A stretch of DNA of 64,000 bases. It comes from Chitinophagales bacterium (GTDB lineage: Bacteria > Bacteroidota > Bacteroidia > Chitinophagales > JADIYW01). The stretch's first letter is position 1. The number at the start of each line of letters is the position of its first letter. The stretch lies in contig JAMLHH010000016.1 in the NCBI GenBank assembly GCA_023957215.1, positions 1-64,000 of the forward strand. Direction: 5' to 3'. The position numbers and the translations under genes are program-made. Of this stretch, positions 8,923 through 48,768 are shown piece after piece. Below the pieces are notes generated by a model that saw only the letters and a program-made list of their open reading frames with translations, had not been told where the DNA came from and ran no database searches.

Positions 8923-11900
8923 ATAGAATATCTTTTGCTTGCGGATAGTGTTTGAGCATTTTATTAAAAATGGGATTCATGGATAAAAAGTAAGGATTGC
9001 CGACGATAAACATCTGTTTTTTTGCTCTTGTTAATGCAACGTTTAATTTTCTATCTATTGCCCTCCCATTTTCATTAAAAGTATTGGACAATAATTTAAG
9101 TTGGGATTTGTGATTGACACAAAATGAAAAGATAATGATATCTCTTTGTGAGCCTTGATATCTTTCTACCGTATCTATCGTGATATCTTCCAACTCAGGA
9201 ATATTTAATTCTTGTATCCGTTTCCTAATGAGTGCTATCTGATTGCGATAGGGTGTGATAATTCCCAAGGATTTTTGACTGTCAAATTTTATTTTGTTGA
9301 TGATATAAAGTTGGTATATCTCTTTGAGAAGAGCGATGACAATACCGGCTTCATAAGTATTCATCTTAAAAGAAGTGTCTGTTTCTACTTTTTGGGACGG
9401 AATGAAAGCCGTTCTGTTTTTCGCAATAAGCTTTTGAACAGCTTGATTGGTGTTGTACTTTTTCCATTCCAATGGTATAATTTGGTGTGGAGTAGGCACT
9501 AATTCTAATTTTCCTTCGTAAAATTCTTGATTGGAGAAAGATGCAATATCCGCATGCATTCTTCCTTGCTTTTTTAACATACCGAGAGTGGGAGAGTCTG
9601 CTTCGTTTAGATGAGCTCTATACAGTCTCTCAAAAAGGGAAGTCCTTCGGTCTTGAATACCTATATTGATGAGTGAAGAAGTTTTTACTTGGGTAGATTC
9701 TGGACTTTGTAAAACGATGGCAGGCAATTGTTTATAATCACCTATCATAATAAATTTTTCGATGGCATTGTGATTGGAATTGTGTTTCAAACTCAATAAG
9801 CCTATCAGCTGCGGCTCTAATATCTGTGAAGCCTCATCTATAATACAAACCTGAAATTTTTTTAGAGTAAATAAATCCCATTTGCCTGAAATGGATGCGA
9901 CTGTACCCACAAATACTCTGCCGTTTGAGATGACATTTTTTACCTGTTCTCGTTTACCATAGTTTTTAATAATATTTTTTAAAAGATAAGGATGAAATTT
10001 TGAATCAGATGAAAATTCTGAACCTATCCTTATGAAATCAATAGCCGGATGTATCTGTAAAATAGATTCACAAATTTCATCCACGGCTCTATTCGTATAT
10101 GCTAAAAGTAAAATGTGATTGTTTTTATCCGTATAAAACTCTTCTACCATAGACTTCAATACAATAGAGGTCTTTCCTGTGCCTGGTGGTCCAACTAATA
10201 AATAATAGTCTTTTGCTCGTTTGGCATTTAAAACAATCTCATCTATTTCAGGACGGATATAATTTTTGGTCAAAGTAATATCATCATCCACTTTTACTTT
10301 CCTTTGTTGTAAAAGCAAATCTTTACGTTCTTGATTGGTTTGTAAAAAACAGAACAATCCTTTATACATACTTCTAAAAGTACTGTCCATGAAATCGTGT
10401 TCTATGGCATATTTACTTTTTAAAGGTAAAAAGAGAGAATTGCTTTGACTAAAGCGCAAGCGTATTAATATTTGATTGCGTTGAATATCAATGATACTTC
10501 CACGTGTGATTTGTTTGTTGCAGACGTTGTCACCGGCTTGATTCCTTTCGTACAAAATAACAATATCCCCCTTTCTAAAATTGGGTAAAAAATTGTCTTC
10601 ATATTCGGGTAATTTCAGTAAAACTGTAGGAATCTCTCGATCAGAATGATTTTCAATCATTTCTAAATCAATAAGGATATTGCCGGACTCTAATTTTTCT
10701 TCTACTTCATTGAGCCAAATCGATGCTTGTCCCAAACTTTGTTCATAATAACTCAATCCCGATTTGGCAATAAAATGTTCTTTGGCTACAAAATAATAGA
10801 AACTAAAAAAATATTCCTGTTCTAAAAGACTTGCCTGAGTGAAAACTTGTGAGAATCGAAGTATCTGTGGAAGGATAAAACTCTCTATAAACTTTTCGTT
10901 TTGTCCACCTTTGTTGAGTAGTTGTTGGGGTGTAATCCTATTAATTAATTTTCTGAAAAAGCTTTCATCTTCAACAATCAGCCTTTCTAATGCTACGATT
11001 TGATTTCTGATATTTAAAATCTCTTTCATTCCATCCATATAGGGCTGTACCATGCGGAGATTGGCATTAGAATCTTGGTATTTTGAATAAAAAAGATAGG
11101 AGGTAATCTCTTTAAACTTGATACCTAAAACAAGTTGTATCACCATTTGGTATAAAAAAAGCTGTGACTTGTGATTATCTGCGACAAGGCTTGTATTGGA
11201 GTCGGGAAAAGGTGCTTTGCCAGATTTGAGTTCTATGACGACAGATTTATGTGAAGTAAGAGATAAAAAGTCCAATCGACCTTGTACACCGATTTGCGGA
11301 CAGATAAAGCTCGGTTCTAAAATTGCAGTATCTTTATCTATATTTTGCTGTTTAAAAACACTTCTGACAGTATGTTTTATATGATTAAACTGTCTTTGAG
11401 ATTCCTCAAAAAACTTTAATCTTTTTTCATTGTCATCTAATTCGGTGTTGACTGAAATTTCAAAAGGAAAGATTTTGAAAACCTCTTTCATCGTATCTTT
11501 AAAAACGATTTCCTTGTCAAGCGGTGTATGTACAAAAACGTCCAAAAAATAGTTGGCCATATTACCGATGAGAATGGGAGTGGTTGCTTCTGCCAGACTA
11601 AGTTGATTCATATAATACAAAAAAGGATGTGTACTATAACCTTTAAAACACTCCGCTATGGAACTGATATCCAAAAGGTAATCAGGTTCTAAAATAAAAA
11701 GTTCGGGTGTGATTTCTTTATTTTTAATGTGACAATTTATCAAATGGAGAATGTGACCTGATTTGACAAACTTTAAGCTGTCGAGAAAGGGTGGGCTTTG
11801 GGTGTCAAAAATAACCTTATATATATCTGTACTCAGTTCTTGTATGTAGCCCATAAAACAACTGGCTTGTATTTCTTTTACATAAAATCTTGCTAATGCT

Positions 11901-38858: not shown

Positions 38859-41800
38859 CTATTCTGAATCAGGTGTTTCTTTCCCTTTTCTTTTATTGTT
38901 TTTTTGTTTGGTTTTATCTTTTTGTGTATCGTTTTCCAACTGCTTTTTTTCTTCCTCTTTTGGGTTTTCAATGTTGATCAGTTCTTTCTTTTTCTCATCT
39001 AAAACTTTCATGTCAGCGTCTTCTGCTTTCTCTAACTCAGTATCAATAGATTGTTTTGTTTTCACAGAATCTATTGGGGTATTGATCTCAATATCGGTAG
39101 ATTCAGGAGTTTTTACGGAATCCTTTTCAGTATGAACTTCTATGTCAACAGGTATAGAGGTTTTTACGGAATCTTTTTGGGTTTCAACCGGTTCAGATGT
39201 TTGGACAGAATCCTTTTCAGTATGAATTTTTATGTCAACAGGTACGGAAGTTTTTATGGAATCTTTTTGGGTTTCAACAGGTTCAGATGTTTGGACAGAA
39301 TCCTTTTCAGTATGAATTTTTATGTCAACAGGTACGGAAGTTTTTACGGAATCTTTTTGGGTTTCAACAGGTTCAGATGTTTGGACAGAATCCTTTTCTG
39401 TATGAACTTCTATGTTGACAGGTTTGGTAGTTTGAACGGAATCTTTTTGGGTTTCAACCGGTACAGGAGTTTGGATAGCATCCTTTTCTGCATGAACTTC
39501 TATGTTGACAGGTATAGAAGTTTGAACGGAATCTTTTGGGGTTTCAACCGGCTTTTCTTCAAGTGTCTTATTAGTAGGTTGACCAATATTTTCTATCTCT
39601 TCTTTTACATTGTCCTCTTGCTCTTTGATTTCAAATTCTGTATCAGGTATCTGTATAGTTTCTTCAGGAACGGCTTCTTCCACTATTCCGAAAGCTTTTT
39701 TGTATTGATATTCAAAATCGTTCATTCTACCTAAGAAATTATCTTTGAGCGTAGGAGTGGTAGAAGATATTTTATACACTACTTCTTTCCCTGATTTGAG
39801 TTCTTTTTTACTTGATTTTATACTTTCAAAAGCATTGTTGAAGTTTGCATCAGAACTGATGAAAGATAATTCATTGTTGTAATGGCGGATAAATATCCAT
39901 TCGTTATTAGCGGTAGTCAAAAATATATGGAAAAAATCTCCATCCTTTCGTGGACCGATTTCTATATATGCTTGAATGGTTTGAAGAAAAGGTTTGCCGG
40001 CAAAAATCATCATACCTATCGGTTCTACGGATTTGAAAGTTCCTTCCATATTGTCGTAGGTAAGATTTACATTACTGAAAACCATATTGTAAGGAAAATC
40101 TTGTGACAGGTTTAAAACGCCTGCCTCTATCATATCACGGGCGATATTGTCTTTTTGAGCATTATCACCCAATAATCTTTTAATCGTCTGACTAAGTTCT
40201 TTGTTGCCGTTGAGTTTTTGATACTTGCCTTCTACATGATTATCTATCATAAATCTATTGAGAAGATTATTGACCTCATCTACCATATAAAGGTCAAAAG
40301 CGACTGACCCTTTGATTTGAAAAGGAGTGGGGCTATTTTTTATGTAAGTGCTTGTACCATAGATATCTATTTTGTTTGGACTGACATCTTCTGTCAAGTG
40401 ATATTCTCCTCTTGCTTCCAATTCTCCGTTTTCATCATTGTATTTTAGGAGTGGCTTATCCTCACTCATTTTATCAACGGCTTCTTCGTCACCAAATAAG
40501 ATGATAGGACTGGCAGGGACAGATTTCATCACGCCATTTGCGGTATAAATAGCTCTGTCTGACGGGATATCTTTGGATTGTATGATTCTTGGATAAATAC
40601 GCATATCGTACATATCAAGCATCAATCCTGTATAGATATCTTGCCCACTTTCGTTTTTTAGAGAATCAATAGTGAAAGCAGAGTTTTTATAATCTAATTC
40701 TTGTGAGACATGAAACCAGTCTGCATCAGATATTGTATTCAATTGAGGTTTGGCAAAGCCTTCCAACTCGATATTTTTATTCAAGGAGTTTAACAGCAAA
40801 TCTCCTTTATACAACAGATTTTCAGAAAGTTGCAGAGGATGGGCATCGTCAATAAAACCTTTTGCCTGTACGTAATAAAGTGTGTCCACAGCTTTCTTTT
40901 TACCTTTGATGGTATCTTTCAAATTTTTCATGGTTTGAAAGGATTCTATATCAATGGTTTTTAGTTCATCACCAACGGGAATGTCTAATTTACCACTGCC
41001 TTTCATTTCATTTTTATTGGTAATTTCTACGGTTGCCCCATACAATTTATGATATTCATTTTCAGTATTTAAGACCACCTCCGCATTGTCAAGTATGTCT
41101 ATCAATCCATTGTCCTTGATTTTTAATAGGGCATTGTCAGGAATGACTTTTGAGTCCGCTACTAAAATTTGAGTAATTTCTCCTAAATCAAGTTCTTTGG
41201 TATTTTCGTCAAATGAAGATTTTTTGGCATTGAGTCTGACTCCTGCAAATTTATTTTCTGTAAACTCAAAATATTTGTCATCATCGTTTTGTGTTGCTTC
41301 GGTAGAGATTTTAGAGTTTTTGATATTCCATTTAAAAGAGTTGTAATTGGTGATAATTTTATTGTCGGTATATTCGGATAAGGTGTCTGTTTTAATTTCA
41401 GCAATCAGGCTATCTGTATTGATTTCGATAGTGCCTATTCCTGATTTAAAGACTTCATTTTCATCTTTTGTTATAGAAACAAGGGTGTTATTAACGAGGG
41501 CTTTATGGAGTAAAAGGTCTATCTTGTCTGACTGAAAAGTATCTTCATCAATGAGGATATTCCCTCTTTCGGAAAGATGGTTGCCGTTAATAAAAAAGTC
41601 ACCTTTTAAAGTAAATTGGTTTTGATAAGCTTTGAGTTCTTTTTCTTCATTCAAAGCAAGATAAATACTGTCATTCTTAGGTATCCAACTCATCAATACA
41701 GAATCTGCGCTTAATTCGGGATAGACCATATCATCAGTCAAAACGCTTTCCCATTTGGTGAGATTTCCTGCTGCCGAATCCGGTAACAAGGTCATTTCAT

Positions 41801-44153
41801 CAAAGTGAAAACTCATGTTATTACGCTCTATTCTACCTTTTGCCCTCAGACCATTTTTATTCAGACTGACTTCTCCAAACAAAACAGAATTACCGCCGTA
41901 TAATTTTTCGCCATCTGCTTTGGTGGTAAAATTAACTCCCAAAGTCAAATCTTCATGGTTGACGGCAAGTTCGGCATCCATGTCTTGAAAGATATGGTCG
42001 GAAACAAATTCTCCCTTAAACCGAATGCTATCTGTATCAACTGTACTCATTTTTTCAATTGTGAAAGGATAGATTTTGAAATTAAAACTTTCTACTGCAT
42101 ACTTATCTCCAAACTTGGTAAATCCGAAATCTAAAACCGTCGTATCCGTATTTACAAAATAAGGATACCGGGTGTAACGAGCAGACTTATTTCTTTGAGA
42201 TGGATCTGAAACGAAAATTCTACCGCTTATCTTTTTGATAGGCGTATTGATCTCGGTATAAAAAGTATTGCCTTTGGAATCTGTTTGCTCTAAAGGCACC
42301 ATGATGAGCATAGAGTCAATCTTATTTAGGTCAAAAGCATTGTCGTCATAGTTATAAGTAATGGTATCTGAATAGAAATTAAATTTTCCCGAAGTCAGAC
42401 GACCTTTGAAAGCAATACCTCTATTTTCTGTGACATAAACCGTATCCGAACTAAGCGCCATCATAATATTGGCACTGGGTACAATGGGAGCATCTTCAAC
42501 ACCGAGTAATTCAAGTTTCTTTTGATCGAAAAGTAATTTGCCGACTGTACCTTGTGTGACGGATGAAAGTTTGATATTGTCGTAATCAGTATCTTCAGGG
42601 TTTTTCCTGATTTCGGCATACAACATAAGTTTGTCAAAGACATAGACCATACCATCTTCACTGTCGTAATTGAGAAATCCGTCTTCCATCATTTTATAAA
42701 TCAAGCCCTCAATGGACTTATAACTTCCTACCTGTAATAAACCTGCAATTTCTTCTATGCTAATCGTTCTAAAACCTATGTCATCACAAAATTCGGCAAT
42801 CTTGGCAATCGGGTCAACATTGATATATTGGGTGTATTTGGAATCTACACCTTCTTTGTAATAGTTAAAAGACTCAAAATCAGCCGGCAACTTTGCATTG
42901 GTAAAAGTGGAGTTCATATCGGCATAAGTATTACCTATCGTCCAATCAAATTGATCGGTATATAAGTTCATCTTGAAAAAAGGAGAGATGAAAGGCGACT
43001 TGGCTTCATTGGTTCCCAATCTGGTAATTTTAAGGTTTTTGGTTTCCACATTGTAAGCGATTGCACAAGACGGATGAAAAATAGGAGTGGAGTCATTGAG
43101 ATATGCGAAATACACTTTTGCTTTTTTAGACTCTATTTTCTTTAAGTTTTCTATCCGCAAACGGGAAGTTTCAGAATCCAAGACTTTGCCGATATTGGGG
43201 TCAAAAATCTTCAACCTTGCAGGTTCGACTCTTGATGAATTGGTAGCATAAATGACATTGCCGTCTAACTCCACATTGCCTGTCACTTGGATATCTTTGG
43301 ATATATTGATTTCCCAATTGTCATAAGACTGAAATTTGGGATAAGATCTTGCCGCAGCGACCGTATTGAATAGTTTGTCGTTAAAACGCCCCTTTATCGC
43401 ACTTTCTATATAAGGAGTGAAATTTAAAATTGAAGAATCGGTAGTCAGTTCCGATTGTGATAAATCTATTTCATATTCGGAAAAAGTAACGTAAGTTTCA
43501 TTAGGATTGTAATCTGCTCTATGCCAATTGATTCTTCCTTTTTTCCCTTTCCAAAGATTTGTAAACGGGTAAAACTCTCCGGCAGTCTCCCAAATGATGA
43601 GTGAGTCAACTTTTGTTATACCTCTCAATGTCAGTTTATCAAAAACATAGACAGGAAAGCCATCTTTTATTTGAATTTTATAAGAACCATCTGCTTCCCA
43701 ATTTTTTATTTTATCAGAGAAAATAGATTTGTCTTGATAGAGTTTGGTGAGATAATTGACATAAAGGTTGAAGTTTTTATTAGCATCTGCGCCATCGGCA
43801 TTGAGCAGTTGGTAAAGTACCTCATAGTTTTTCGAAATAATATCCGGAGAAATTTCTGTGGCAGCTCCCGAATTTTGAACCAATTTGAAAAAGTTATAGA
43901 ATTGTGGCCAAAGGAGTATTTTTTTCTTCAACATCAGATTGGAGATATCTTTTACCTTAGGAAAATCTTGTTGGTTTTGCAGATTACTTTTTATCCAAAG
44001 TCCCAATTCTTTGGTCTCCGGTTTATTATTAGAACCGATATAAGTGCTTAATGTATTGATAAATTCTGCATCGTTTTCAGGAAAGGGTTTTACACTTTGT
44101 GCATCTGAATAAAAGTAGATGAAGACTGTCAATATGCCGAGAAAGTATCTCAT
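38859..44153 (-). CDS. Giant exported protein with Thr/Lys-rich C-terminal repeats
   Basis: The protein has 1764 residues from ATG 44153, whose ATGA overlaps the prmA stop; this overlap and the signal peptide (YFLGILTVFIYFYSDAQ) fix the start. The first half has alternating soluble helical and beta segments (GNVELDGNVIYATNS, GIAFKGRLTSGKFNFY). The middle has many short strand repeats, such as VLFGEVSLNKNGLRAKGRIE, reminiscent of LPS-transport OstA-like or autotransporter passenger folds. The C-terminus is a disordered tail holding a 30-residue repeat. The family is found in Bacteroidota and its function is unknown. Confidence 0.68.
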   Translation of the reverse strand: MRYFLGILTVFIYFYSDAQSVKPFPENDAEFINTLSTYIGSNNKPETKELGLWIKSNLQNQQDFPKVKDISNLMLKKKILLWPQFYNFFKLVQNSGAATEISPDIISKNYEVLYQLLNADGADANKNFNLYVNYLTKLYQDKSIFSDKIKNWEADGSYKIQIKDGFPVYVFDKLTLRGITKVDSLIIWETAGEFYPFTNLWKGKKGRINWHRADYNPNETYVTFSEYEIDLSQSELTTDSSILNFTPYIESAIKGRFNDKLFNTVAAARSYPKFQSYDNWEINISKDIQVTGNVELDGNVIYATNSSRVEPARLKIFDPNIGKVLDSETSRLRIENLKKIESKKAKVYFAYLNDSTPIFHPSCAIAYNVETKNLKITRLGTNEAKSPFISPFFKMNLYTDQFDWTIGNTYADMNSTFTNAKLPADFESFNYYKEGVDSKYTQYINVDPIAKIAEFCDDIGFRTISIEEIAGLLQVGSYKSIEGLIYKMMEDGFLNYDSEDGMVYVFDKLMLYAEIRKNPEDTDYDNIKLSSVTQGTVGKLLFDQKKLELLGVEDAPIVPSANIMMALSSDTVYVTENRGIAFKGRLTSGKFNFYSDTITYNYDDNAFDLNKIDSMLIMVPLEQTDSKGNTFYTEINTPIKKISGRIFVSDPSQRNKSARYTRYPYFVNTDTTVLDFGFTKFGDKYAVESFNFKIYPFTIEKMSTVDTDSIRFKGEFVSDHIFQDMDAELAVNHEDLTLGVNFTTKADGEKLYGGNSVLFGEVSLNKNGLRAKGRIERNNMSFHFDEMTLLPDSAAGNLTKWESVLTDDMVYPELSADSVLMSWIPKNDSIYLALNEEKELKAYQNQFTLKGDFFINGNHLSERGNILIDEDTFQSDKIDLLLHKALVNNTLVSITKDENEVFKSGIGTIEINTDSLIAEIKTDTLSEYTDNKIITNYNSFKWNIKNSKISTEATQNDDDKYFEFTENKFAGVRLNAKKSSFDENTKELDLGEITQILVADSKVIPDNALLKIKDNGLIDILDNAEVVLNTENEYHKLYGATVEITNKNEMKGSGKLDIPVGDELKTIDIESFQTMKNLKDTIKGKKKAVDTLYYVQAKGFIDDAHPLQLSENLLYKGDLLLNSLNKNIELEGFAKPQLNTISDADWFHVSQELDYKNSAFTIDSLKNESGQDIYTGLMLDMYDMRIYPRIIQSKDIPSDRAIYTANGVMKSVPASPIILFGDEEAVDKMSEDKPLLKYNDENGELEARGEYHLTEDVSPNKIDIYGTSTYIKNSPTPFQIKGSVAFDLYMVDEVNNLLNRFMIDNHVEGKYQKLNGNKELSQTIKRLLGDNAQKDNIARDMIEAGVLNLSQDFPYNMVFSNVNLTYDNMEGTFKSVEPIGMMIFAGKPFLQTIQAYIEIGPRKDGDFFHIFLTTANNEWIFIRHYNNELSFISSDANFNNAFESIKSSKKELKSGKEVVYKISSTTPTLKDNFLGRMNDFEYQYKKAFGIVEEAVPEETIQIPDTEFEIKEQEDNVKEEIENIGQPTNKTLEEKPVETPKDSVQTSIPVNIEVHAEKDAIQTPVPVETQKDSVQTTKPVNIEVHTEKDSVQTSEPVETQKDSVKTSVPVDIKIHTEKDSVQTSEPVETQKDSIKTSVPVDIKIHTEKDSVQTSEPVETQKDSVKTSIPVDIEVHTEKDSVKTPESTDIEINTPIDSVKTKQSIDTELEKAEDADMKVLDEKKKELINIENPKEEEKKQLENDTQKDKTKQKNNKRKGKETPDSE
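39091..39540 (-). repeat. 90-bp tandem repeat within the giant protein
   Basis: Five 90-bp units (starting near 39091, 39181, 39271, 39361 and 39451) encode a 30-residue unit of the kind VETQKDSVKTSVPVDIKIHT followed by EKDSVQTSEP. Copies two to four are almost identical; the outer ones are more diverged. The same length and frame in each copy show that selection keeps the reading frame open. Confidence 0.88.
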
Positions 44154-44983
44154 TTTTCCTTTGTTTTTTGTAATAAAATGCATGACCAATTTTCTGATTG
44201 TGTAATATAATTTGCCAAGAGTTGGTTTTCCTGTGCTGTGTTTAAAATATCTTGATTATCAGTACTTAAAAATCCACTCACTATCAAAAATCCATTGTCT
44301 TTAAGTTTAGAACTCAAAAGTGACATATTTTCGGCAATGAAATTTTTGTGGATATTCGCCAAAATAACATTAAAATCACTTTCGACAATTTCCTCCAAAG
44401 AACCCAATCTCATTTCTGTTTGAGCTTGATTGAGAGCGACATTTTCCAAATGATTTTCATAAGACCAAGTGTCATTGTCAAAGGCGATTATTTCTCTCGC
44501 ATTCATTTTGTGAGCAAGAATGGCTAAAACACCTGTGCCGCTTCCGCAGTCTAACACCTTTTTTTCTTGAATTTCTATCAAAGCCATCATTTGCATCATC
44601 TGCTGGGTCGTCGCATGATGACCGGTGCCGAAAGACATTTTGGGGTTGATGATAATTTCATACTTGACATTTTCAAATTTTGGATGAAAATCGGAACGTA
44701 TGCCTACAAAATCATTGATTCGTAAAGGCTGAAAGTTTTTTTCCCATTCTTCATTCCAGTTTTTCTCTTCCAAACTTTCTACCGTATAAGTAGTTTGAAA
44801 ATCATGTAGAAATACTGTCAAAGCACTTTCAAACTCCTCTTTTTCATTTTCGCTCACATATACTTTTATCGAATCGTTTAACTCTTCAATACCATCGTTG
44901 TCTATAATACTCAACAGCTCTGCAAAAGCTTCTGTACTCAATTTTTTGGGTGTGAGTATGTGAAAAACTCTGTATGTCGTCAT
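44150..44983 (-). CDS. prmA: Ribosomal protein L11 methyltransferase
   Basis: The 277-residue enzyme trimethylates ribosomal protein L11. The PrmA hallmark NPKMSFGTGHHATTQQMM is followed by the SAM loop VLDCGSGTGVLAIL and ANIHKNF for the catalytic motif (NIxxN-like ANI). The N-terminal segment is the L11-binding domain. It overlaps tpiA upstream and the giant gene downstream, each by 4 bp (ATGA). Confidence 0.9.
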   Translation of the reverse strand: MTTYRVFHILTPKKLSTEAFAELLSIIDNDGIEELNDSIKVYVSENEKEEFESALTVFLHDFQTTYTVESLEEKNWNEEWEKNFQPLRINDFVGIRSDFHPKFENVKYEIIINPKMSFGTGHHATTQQMMQMMALIEIQEKKVLDCGSGTGVLAILAHKMNAREIIAFDNDTWSYENHLENVALNQAQTEMRLGSLEEIVESDFNVILANIHKNFIAENMSLLSSKLKDNGFLIVSGFLSTDNQDILNTAQENQLLANYITQSENWSCILLQKTKEK

Positions 44984-46952: not shown

Positions 46953-47134
46953 AAAAACAAAAATAAAGAATTATCTGATTTGTTAGATAATAGTTTTAAA
47001 AGTAAAGTGTCTAAAGTGAAATGAAGTTGTACACAAGCTTATAAAATGAGTCCAAAAAGGATTATCTTGGTTTTAATTGGTAACTTCGTAGCTAATATTT
47101 CTAATTTGAAAAGGGTAATAAATGATGGATATTT

Positions 47135-48235
47135 ATGGTTGAATCATTAGTACAATGGACATTATTGAATAATCCTACTGAATTAGGAAATTATCTAAAT
47201 TTTGATTTAGCAAAGATTATAGGTCAAGAAATTACCACTGAGTACGGACGTATAGATTTCGTAGTGGCAAATACAAAAAATCATCATCTGATTGTAGAAC
47301 TTGAAACAACGCTCAATACAAAGTGAAAAATTGATTATTGTCTAACTCAAACTTTGAACTATAAGAATGTGAAGTTTTCTGATAGTACAAAATATTGTAT
47401 TTTATATGCGGAAGAGACAAATGCAAAAAGTAAAAAAATATTAGAAAGGTTTGGAGATGAAAATAATATCATTATTCAAACTTATCCATTAGAAAGTATA
47501 AAAAAACTTTATTCTACAACCATTGAGCGACTTAGTTTGAATGTCGGCTTAGTATTGCCCAATCCGAAAAATTATACAATATGTTTTCTTCGATGGCTAA
47601 ATAAAATAATGAAAACTTTTGCCGATTTGAACAAAAATGTTTTAACAGCTTCTCAGATATTTATTCCTTTTGAAAATGTTAGTAATAGTAGAACAAACTT
47701 TAATTGTTATGAAAGATTGGCGTTAGACTTTGAATTATTTGAAATAATAGGCTCAAAATATCACTTAACAATGGACGGAGAGGTATTTGTAAAAAACCTC
47801 AGCCCTTCTATATACAGTACCAATAATGTATCTTCCATCAATCTAACGAATGAGCAAAAAAGATTGTTGCTGAAAGTTTTAACAAATGGAAATTGGGATA
47901 ATAAAGTTCACAAAGTAAATATTTATTGGTTTCTAATATTTATTGAAATGACTCATGGGAACTGGTTGCCCAAAATGAATAAATTTGATTACGATAAATT
48001 GGAGATTGCAAGAGGTATTTTTAGTGTTTCATACAATGAAAGAACCATGTATGAGTTTCTTAAATGGTGTTCTAACTATTGTTTGGAATTGGGATTGATA
48101 GGAATAACTAAATCAAGTACAAATTATGATCAAGTTTTTTTAACTCCACTTGGGATAGAAGTAAACAACATATTCAGTTTAGACTTGACACTAAAAAAAA
48201 GTAGGATGAATTTAAGTTTTAAATTTTTAGAATAA
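47135..48235 (+). pseudogene. PD-(D/E)XK restriction-endonuclease-like gene interrupted by an in-frame TGA
   Basis: Two ORFs (47135-47326 and 47354-48235) are in the same frame and separated only by TGA at 47324-47326 and 9 codons without a start. Read through, the product of about 366 residues has GRIDFV and LIVELETTL (a D...E-x-E pattern close to restriction nuclease cores such as BamHI), interrupted just after the second motif. A helical C-terminal half with winged-helix character follows. The pair is therefore probably inactive, unless the stop is a sequence error. It overlaps the next gene by one base (TAATG). Confidence 0.62.
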
Positions 48236-48768
48236 TGAATAACACAATTATAAATAATATACTTAGTAATAATCCGCAATTATTACAAGACCTCGGTGAT
48301 CGGCTATATGAAAAAATCACAGAAGTTGTAATACCCGAATGGCAAGAAGCGTTTAATGCTTTAACGAAAGAAGATTGCTATAATTACATTTATAATCTGA
48401 CAATCAACCGAACTTTTGACGGATATTTAAGAGAAAAATCTGTTGTGAATGACGGTTTAGCAAAAGCATTTCCACAAGTTAGATTTGAAGAAAGTCCGCC
48501 TGAATTAGACCACGCAGGAGACATAGACTATCTTGGATATGTTACAGAAAACAAAGCATTTGGAATACAAATAAAACCAGTAACAGCACAATCTAACTTT
48601 GGAAATTATTCGGTTTCCGAAAGAATGAAAGCAAGTTTCGAAAGTTTTAAAAATGACTTTGGTGGAAATGTATTTATCGTTTTCAGTTTGGACGGAGAAA
48701 TAGCCAACAAACAAGTAATTGACCAAATCCAAACCGAAATTGAACGATTGGAAAATATTGCCGATTAG
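48235..48768 (+). CDS. MjaI-family type II restriction endonuclease
   Basis: The 177-residue protein has segments of the MjaI family (Pfam RE_MjaI): NLTINRTFDGYLREKSVV, DHAGDIDYLGYVTENKAFG and the nuclease core GIQIKPVTAQSNFG with the expected Asp and Lys. MjaI from Methanocaldococcus cuts CTAG; the specificity here is only inferred. ATG 48235 overlaps the stop of the upstream nuclease-like gene (TAATG), so the two form one transcript. No matching methyltransferase was seen nearby. Confidence 0.72.
   Translation: MNNTIINNILSNNPQLLQDLGDRLYEKITEVVIPEWQEAFNALTKEDCYNYIYNLTINRTFDGYLREKSVVNDGLAKAFPQVRFEESPPELDHAGDIDYLGYVTENKAFGIQIKPVTAQSNFGNYSVSERMKASFESFKNDFGGNVFIVFSLDGEIANKQVIDQIQTEIERLENIAD

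What the first reader, a model, noticed from the sequence alone, without database searches (positions are those of the whole stretch)
47135..48768. Two linked restriction-nuclease-like genes with no methyltransferase, one broken by in-frame TGA
The first gene keeps its frame across a single TGA and shows a D...E-x-E nuclease core; the second is MjaI-like. A one-base stop-start overlap links them. A functional restriction enzyme without its modification enzyme should be harmful, so either the methyltransferase is elsewhere or the system is decaying. The first protein is not recognisable as a named family and could be an undescribed partner of MjaI-type enzymes.
Basis: partly seen in the sequence, partly recalled or inferred. 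Interest (0 to 1): 0.6.

Follow-up and report, generated by a model that had tools for sequence, protein, structure and literature searches.

The report
Nuclease gene that guts restriction operons
A little-known DNA-cutting gene has inserted itself many times into the same kind of bacterial restriction-modification operon, each time destroying the protecting enzyme and trimming the cutting enzyme, and the pair seen here is one such gutted operon in which the invader has since picked up a stop codon.

Summary
Gene X (47135-48235) reads open across one TGA, the MjaI-family gene R (48235-48768) follows with a one-base overlap, and no cognate methyltransferase (M) was found in the genome. Relatives change the interpretation. 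The usual system is an intact two-gene operon, M (~430 aa) then R (~230 aa): 22 of 29 sampled R loci have full M, none has X. X occurs in 13 readable loci; in 10 it sits on M or R sequence, and all 10 are broken: M is missing or cut at a different codon each time, and R lacks its N-terminal helical domain or more. X has its own AT-rich composition. The R pieces beside X derive from different resident lineages (one clade rejected, AU p 3.5e-164; 0.005 without the chimeric R of L003); the M remnants scatter too. The window's R piece is 93% identical to an intact operon's R in another family. X is a NucS/EndoMS-type nuclease domain plus winged helices, in no named family. Best reading: X is a mobile, probably homing-type nuclease gene that invades CTAG-type R-M operons and disarms both genes at once; the window holds a decaying copy. 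CTAG depletion here (0.13; congeners 0.65) suggests R was once active. Homing is inferred, not shown.

The parts
47135..48235 (+). Gene X (366 codons), NucS-like nuclease plus winged-helix protein, interrupted by one in-frame TGA; probably a pseudogene here
47324..47326 (+). in-frame TGA, codon 64 of X; intact copies without it exist in relatives
47135..47539 (+). X residues 1-135: PD-(D/E)xK-type nuclease domain with D41, E55, E57
   Evidence: AlphaFold2 model, VIA Z 12.0 to EndoMS/NucS, 2.3 A over 108 residues
47882..48214 (+). X residues 250-360: PadR/MarR-type winged-helix domain
   Evidence: VIA Z about 8-9.6 to many winged-helix regulators; shared fold only
48235..48768 (+). R with N-terminal domain missing (177 aa), MjaI-family restriction endonuclease remnant, TAATG overlap with X
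48235..48294 (+). first about 20 codons of R, travelling with X and not derived from resident R (shared pattern in L003, L005, L006, L007)
48286..48743 (+). resident-derived part of R: 82.8% DNA identity to R of the intact M-R operon in L032/L064; 93% protein identity in the C-terminal part
47040..47134 (+). 5' flank of X, where relatives carry a cut methyltransferase gene; no recognisable remnant left here

Best explanation
The window holds the wreck of a type II restriction-modification operon, M then R with CTAG specificity, invaded by gene X. X encodes a probably sequence-specific nuclease (NucS-type catalytic domain plus winged helices for DNA recognition). Most likely mechanism: X cuts a resident M-R operon between the 3' part of M and the 5' part of R. 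The break is repaired using an X-bearing copy, with pairing in R on the right and an imprecise join somewhere in M on the left. This leaves M missing or cut at an arbitrary codon, X intact and tightly coupled to a preceding reading frame, and R restarted without its N-terminal helical domain. Losing M and disarming R in one event avoids the self-killing that loss of M alone would cause. In this genome X has since gained a stop codon. Shown here: the mosaic structure, the many different junctions, the independent ancestry of the R pieces, X's foreign composition, the absence of M, and CTAG depletion. Inferred: that X itself cleaves the operon, that repair copies it, and that the trimmed R is inactive.
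For: Intact M-R without X is the normal state: 22 of 29 sampled R loci have full M directly upstream, none has X. All 10 X loci with M or R sequence are broken. M is cut at about codon 13 (L007), 25 (L006), 48 (L023), 95 (L003), 129 (L004), 140 (L025), 147 (L005) or 277 (L010). R begins at about codon 70 of the normal protein in five loci, further in for L004 and L024, and is absent in others. C-terminal R parts beside X are polyphyletic: AU test p 3.5e-164 for five, 0.005 without L003; R of the window is 93% identical to R of an intact operon from another family. L003 R is a chimera: subfamily 1 up to the conserved NRTFDGY, then subfamily 2. M remnants do not cluster (5 changes for 5 rows). 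X is 24-31% GC in hosts of 30-52% and beside M remnants of 34-40%. X is under purifying selection, pN/pS 0.13-0.26, yet several copies are dead: TGA here, frame breaks in L010, transposase split in G412. Fold match Z 12 to EndoMS/NucS. No M ortholog in the own genome. CTAG observed/expected 0.13 here, 0.65-0.67 in two congeners, median 0.08 in subfamily-1 M-R genomes against 0.44 without R (p 0.001).
Against: No cleavage, homing or expression was tested. No same-site comparison of occupied and empty chromosomal sites was found; flanks of G143 and G025 differ. Classical homing inserts cleanly, whereas here M and R sequence is lost. X also occurs away from M-R (L008 leuS-serS, L009, L069), so its target cannot be only that operon. 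The first 20 codons of the trimmed R show mild constraint (pN/pS mostly 0.4-0.7 on about 11 synonymous sites), which would fit a still-used trimmed R. R in the window is barely relaxed (pN/pS 0.13-0.14 against 0.09 between intact copies). The left junctions could also have arisen by later deletion of a useless M. Several hosts are metagenome assemblies. The group put to the AU test was named after related comparisons had been inspected.
Confidence: 0.55

Rival explanations
1. X and the trimmed R are a working two-gene defence pair that no longer needs a methyltransferase: X supplies DNA binding or control in place of the lost N-terminal domain of R, and M became dispensable and was deleted in each lineage.
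For: TAATG coupling of X and R kept in the window, L005, L006 and L007; open R frames in five loci with the catalytic D/Q-x-K residues kept; mild constraint on the R segment peculiar to X loci; CTAG as depleted in four X+R genomes (0.06-0.15) as in intact M-R genomes.
Against: X occurs without R in at least five loci. R parts beside X come from different resident lineages. About 22 CTAG sites per 104 kb remain here with no M, so an active CTAG nuclease should kill. In the window X has a stop codon.
Confidence: 0.2
2. Ordinary decay of a three-gene M-X-R system: X was a regular third gene, M was lost by chance deletions after the system lost its use, and X and R are on the way out.
For: Solitary restriction genes beside truncated methyltransferase genes are well documented (74 cases, Ershova et al. 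2012, PMC3488263). L010 has a long, frame-broken M followed by X. Dead X copies exist.
Against: No intact M-X-R was found; 0 of 10 X loci has a full M while 22 of 29 loci without X do. M and R pieces have different ancestry from X. The three long M remnants in L003-L005 are open to the junction, so they look recent, yet X is old and widespread.
Confidence: 0.2
3. The TGA in X is a sequencing or assembly error and X is intact in this organism (compatible with any of the readings above).
For: Everything else in X is conserved; one assembly only.
Against: Other copies of X are visibly dead (L010, G412), so loss is common in this family.
Confidence: 0.2

Closest known systems
Free-standing homing endonuclease genes (PD-(D/E)xK type among the known families, PMC6083498 abstract)
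   Same: nuclease gene present or absent between conserved genes, mosaic ancestry with neighbours, repeated invasion of one target, degeneration after spread
   Different: insertion is accompanied by loss of M 3' and R 5' sequence; cleavage untested; NucS-like domain with E-x-E and winged helices, matching no named homing family
NucS/EndoMS mismatch endonuclease
   Same: C-terminal nuclease fold (Z 12.0, 2.3 A over 108 residues)
   Different: the position of the catalytic lysine is Glu (E57); C-terminal winged helices instead of the NucS N-terminal domain; Pfam NucS_C only E 0.0074
MjaI-family type II R-M systems (PF09568)
   Same: R is a clear member; M is an N4/N6 amino-methyltransferase; CTAG avoidance in subfamily 1
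   Different: M absent and R without its N-terminal domain in the window
Solitary restriction endonucleases with truncated methyltransferase genes (Ershova et al. 2012, PMC3488263)
   Same: R without functional M, cut M gene nearby in relatives, intact orthologous systems elsewhere
   Different: here one specific nuclease gene sits at the break every time
[quoted passage not shown]
   Same: nuclease gene inserted into a DNA methyltransferase gene
   Different: phage, HNH type, in-frame and probably non-disruptive insertion in that case

Membership tests
RE_MjaI (PF09568) type II restriction endonuclease | profile match over the curated cut-off | tested here: met
   57.3 bits against 22.7
RE_MjaI (PF09568) type II restriction endonuclease | catalytic D...Q-x-K residues | tested here: met
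   columns D157, Q171, K173 of L032 R invariant in 27 sequences including the window
RE_MjaI (PF09568) type II restriction endonuclease | N-terminal domain (profile positions 1-41) | tested here: not met
   window R matches from position 42; intact relatives match from position 2
RE_MjaI (PF09568) type II restriction endonuclease | cleavage of CTAG | tested here: inconclusive
   CTAG depletion in subfamily-1 genomes, p 0.001; no enzyme assay
Functional type II R-M system | cognate methyltransferase in the genome | tested here: not met
   no match to M in G000 while controls match; the N6_N4_Mtase hits on C9 and C1 did not match the cognate M
Free-standing homing endonuclease | alleles with and without the gene at one kind of locus | tested here: met
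   M-R without X against M'-X-R'
Free-standing homing endonuclease | ancestry of the gene differs from that of its flanks | tested here: met
   AU tests and M tree; composition
Free-standing homing endonuclease | clean insertion without loss of flanking sequence | tested here: not met
   M 3' part and R 5' part missing at every M-R associated locus
Free-standing homing endonuclease | cleaves the empty allele and not the occupied one | not testable with these tools
   needs purified protein
NucS/EndoMS | nuclease domain fold | tested here: met
   Foldseek E 4.4e-5 to 2vld, VIA Z 12.0 to 5gke
NucS/EndoMS | sequence profile over the cut-off | tested here: not met
   NucS_C E 0.0074 in one of 11 members only
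NucS/EndoMS | D...E-x-K active site with lysine | tested here: not met
   E57 at the lysine position in all aligned members

The most novel reading that the evidence does not exclude
X founds a new family of mobile nuclease genes specialised in invading restriction-modification operons: one event removes the methyltransferase, disarms the endonuclease and installs X, so the invader survives the addiction that normally protects such operons.
Probability: 0.4. Interest if true: 0.78.

Novelty: new variant of a known kind. Interest (0 to 1): 0.6.

Why it matters
Restriction-modification systems are selfish: losing the methyltransferase while the endonuclease lives kills the cell. A gene that repeatedly gets past this by breaking both halves in a single insertion would be a natural counter-weapon against addiction modules. 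It would give a direct cause for part of the solitary restriction genes that have puzzled the field, and a simple in vitro test (does X cut the empty M-R operon?). The CTAG avoidance data also give the likely specificity of one subfamily of these enzymes and separate it from a second subfamily.

Tried and rejected
Selenocysteine or TGA recoding: TGA ends other long frames in the window and only one TGA occurs in X. X as a phage or plasmid gene: no match in 50,697 phage records (with the L005 protein), 72,556 plasmid records (with the read-through window protein) or viral contigs. X as a named family: nothing over cut-off in Pfam and NCBIfam, no convincing match in PADLOC or PHROGs. X as TnsA or XisH was considered; XisH shares the fold (Z 9.6-9.2) but so do many nucleases. 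Empty-site comparison between G143 (M-X) and G025 (M-R), same genus: only M aligns, flanks differ. A leader of about 41 bases in front of X is shared by L010, L023 and L025 (32-34 matches, shuffled maximum 29-30), but no shared leader was seen by eye in the other loci, so a fixed left end of the element is not established. A search with X in the window's own family found only the window. N-terminal domain of R: no solved structure covers it convincingly.

Full report
Observation. X (47135-48235, +) is open for 366 codons except for TGA at codon 64, and R (48235-48768, +) follows with TAATG. R matches RE_MjaI from profile position 42 on. X matches no named family over cut-off. The TGA is the only lesion seen in X. 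Relatives at 67-76% identity have no stop there.

Normal system. A search with R in 395 genomes of the phylum found R in 47. In 29 of these loci read locally, 22 have a full methyltransferase (M) directly upstream of R, and none has X. M of such an operon is an N6_N4_Mtase with a C-terminal SNase-like domain. R there is about 230 aa with an N-terminal helical domain (residues 16-60 of the model) that precedes the D...Q-x-K core.

X loci. X was found in the window, five genome contigs and further genomes; two of those genomes are the same as L005 and L006. In 10 of 13 loci with readable flanks X sits on M or R sequence, and no such locus has an intact operon. M is cut after about 13 (L007), 25 (L006), 48 (L023), 95 (L003), 129 (L004), 140 (L025), 147 (L005) or 277 (L010) codons; in the window nothing recognisable is left, and in L024 the contig ends at X. 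The two shortest remnants were read by eye. R starts near codon 70 of the normal protein in five loci with the same TAATG or a near-identical arrangement, starts further in for L004 and L024, and is gone elsewhere. X also occurs alone, directly behind a host gene: leuS (L008), an alanine racemase-like gene (L009), purE-like (L069, in two overlapping frames).

Ancestry. X is 24-31% GC everywhere although the surrounding loci range from 30 to 52% and the M remnants are 34-40%. The C-terminal R parts beside X are not one clade: AU p 3.5e-164 for all five and 0.005 without L003. The window's R is 93% identical to that of an intact M-R operon in another family (L032), more than to any R beside another X; at DNA level the match begins at 48286. 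R of L003 changes from subfamily 1 to subfamily 2 at the conserved NRTFDGY motif, which looks like a recombination joint. M remnants scatter over the M tree; x_L003 groups with L032 (95/92) and x_L010 lies in the subfamily-1 group, 89% identical to M of a congener. Some M fragments are short, so that tree alone is weak.

Nature of X. The AlphaFold2 model (mean pLDDT 80) has a nuclease domain at 1-135, closest to EndoMS/NucS (Z 12.0; Foldseek E 4.4e-5), and a PadR/MarR-type winged helix at 250-360. E55 and E57 are invariant in the alignment; D41 is Tyr in L008. From general knowledge, a D...E-x-E site without lysine is used by BamHI, so this site can be active. X is under purifying selection (pN/pS 0.13-0.26), although individual copies are broken (window, L010, G412). 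Selection on the family with frequent death of copies is what a horizontally spreading gene would show.

R specificity and history. CTAG observed/expected is 0.13 in 104 kb of this genome but 0.65 and 0.67 in two congeners. It is 0.08 (median) in genomes with subfamily-1 M-R, 0.48 with subfamily 2, and 0.44 without R (p 0.001 and 0.39). Four X genomes with a subfamily-1 R piece are depleted (0.06-0.15), and the L003 genome, whose R carries a subfamily-2 C-part, is not (0.54). Hence subfamily 1 most likely recognises CTAG and was active in the window's lineage. Sampling was 9-104 kb per genome. About 22 CTAG per 104 kb remain and no M was found, so the trimmed R is probably inactive.

Mechanism. 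A break in the M-R operon repaired with an X-bearing copy, pairing in R and joining imprecisely in M, explains in one step the variable left junctions, the shared right arrangement with resident R downstream, and survival without M. The part lost in all M-R associated loci (M codons beyond about 277 and R codons before about 70) bounds a possible target. This is inference: X was not shown to cut anything, X also sits elsewhere, and the insertions are not clean as in classical homing. The rivals are a working X-R pair and plain decay of a three-gene system; both are weakened by the polyphyly of R and by the absence of any intact M-X-R, but the sampling is limited.

Known background. Solitary restriction genes next to truncated methyltransferases are established (PMC3488263), and a homing nuclease inside a phage methylase gene has been described (PMC11855218). 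Five literature searches found no description of a nuclease gene that repeatedly invades and breaks M-R operons; the library lacks most subscription papers.

Noticed in passing
L013:2912-4204: The methyltransferase of the intact operons carries a C-terminal staphylococcal-nuclease-like domain (PF00565 just over cut-off).
   Followed up: no
window 39118-39551: 4.8 copies of a 90-bp tandem repeat encode 30-aa repeats near the C-end of a 1776-aa protein (38859-44189, -).
   Followed up: no
window and G000: GATC is also strongly depleted (o/e 0.26), and equally so in two congeners (0.23-0.30), so it looks like a genus-level trait.
   Followed up: partly
L003: A contig labelled Alphaproteobacteria carries what look like Bacteroidota-type genes around X; the bin is probably mislabelled. 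A second, different R-M pair follows at 9842-11411.
   Followed up: no
L013: The only viral-contig hit for R lies on an element with a relaxase-like and an integrase-like gene, not an obvious virus.
   Followed up: no
L025:3-242 and L026: In G412 X is split across two contigs by what looks like a transposase insertion, and a full-length solitary M (351 aa) lies about 2 kb away without R.
   Followed up: partly
L023:6324-6608: A 94-aa frame of no known family follows X in place of R and shares the opening residue pattern of the trimmed R; it may be the original second gene of the X element.
   Followed up: no
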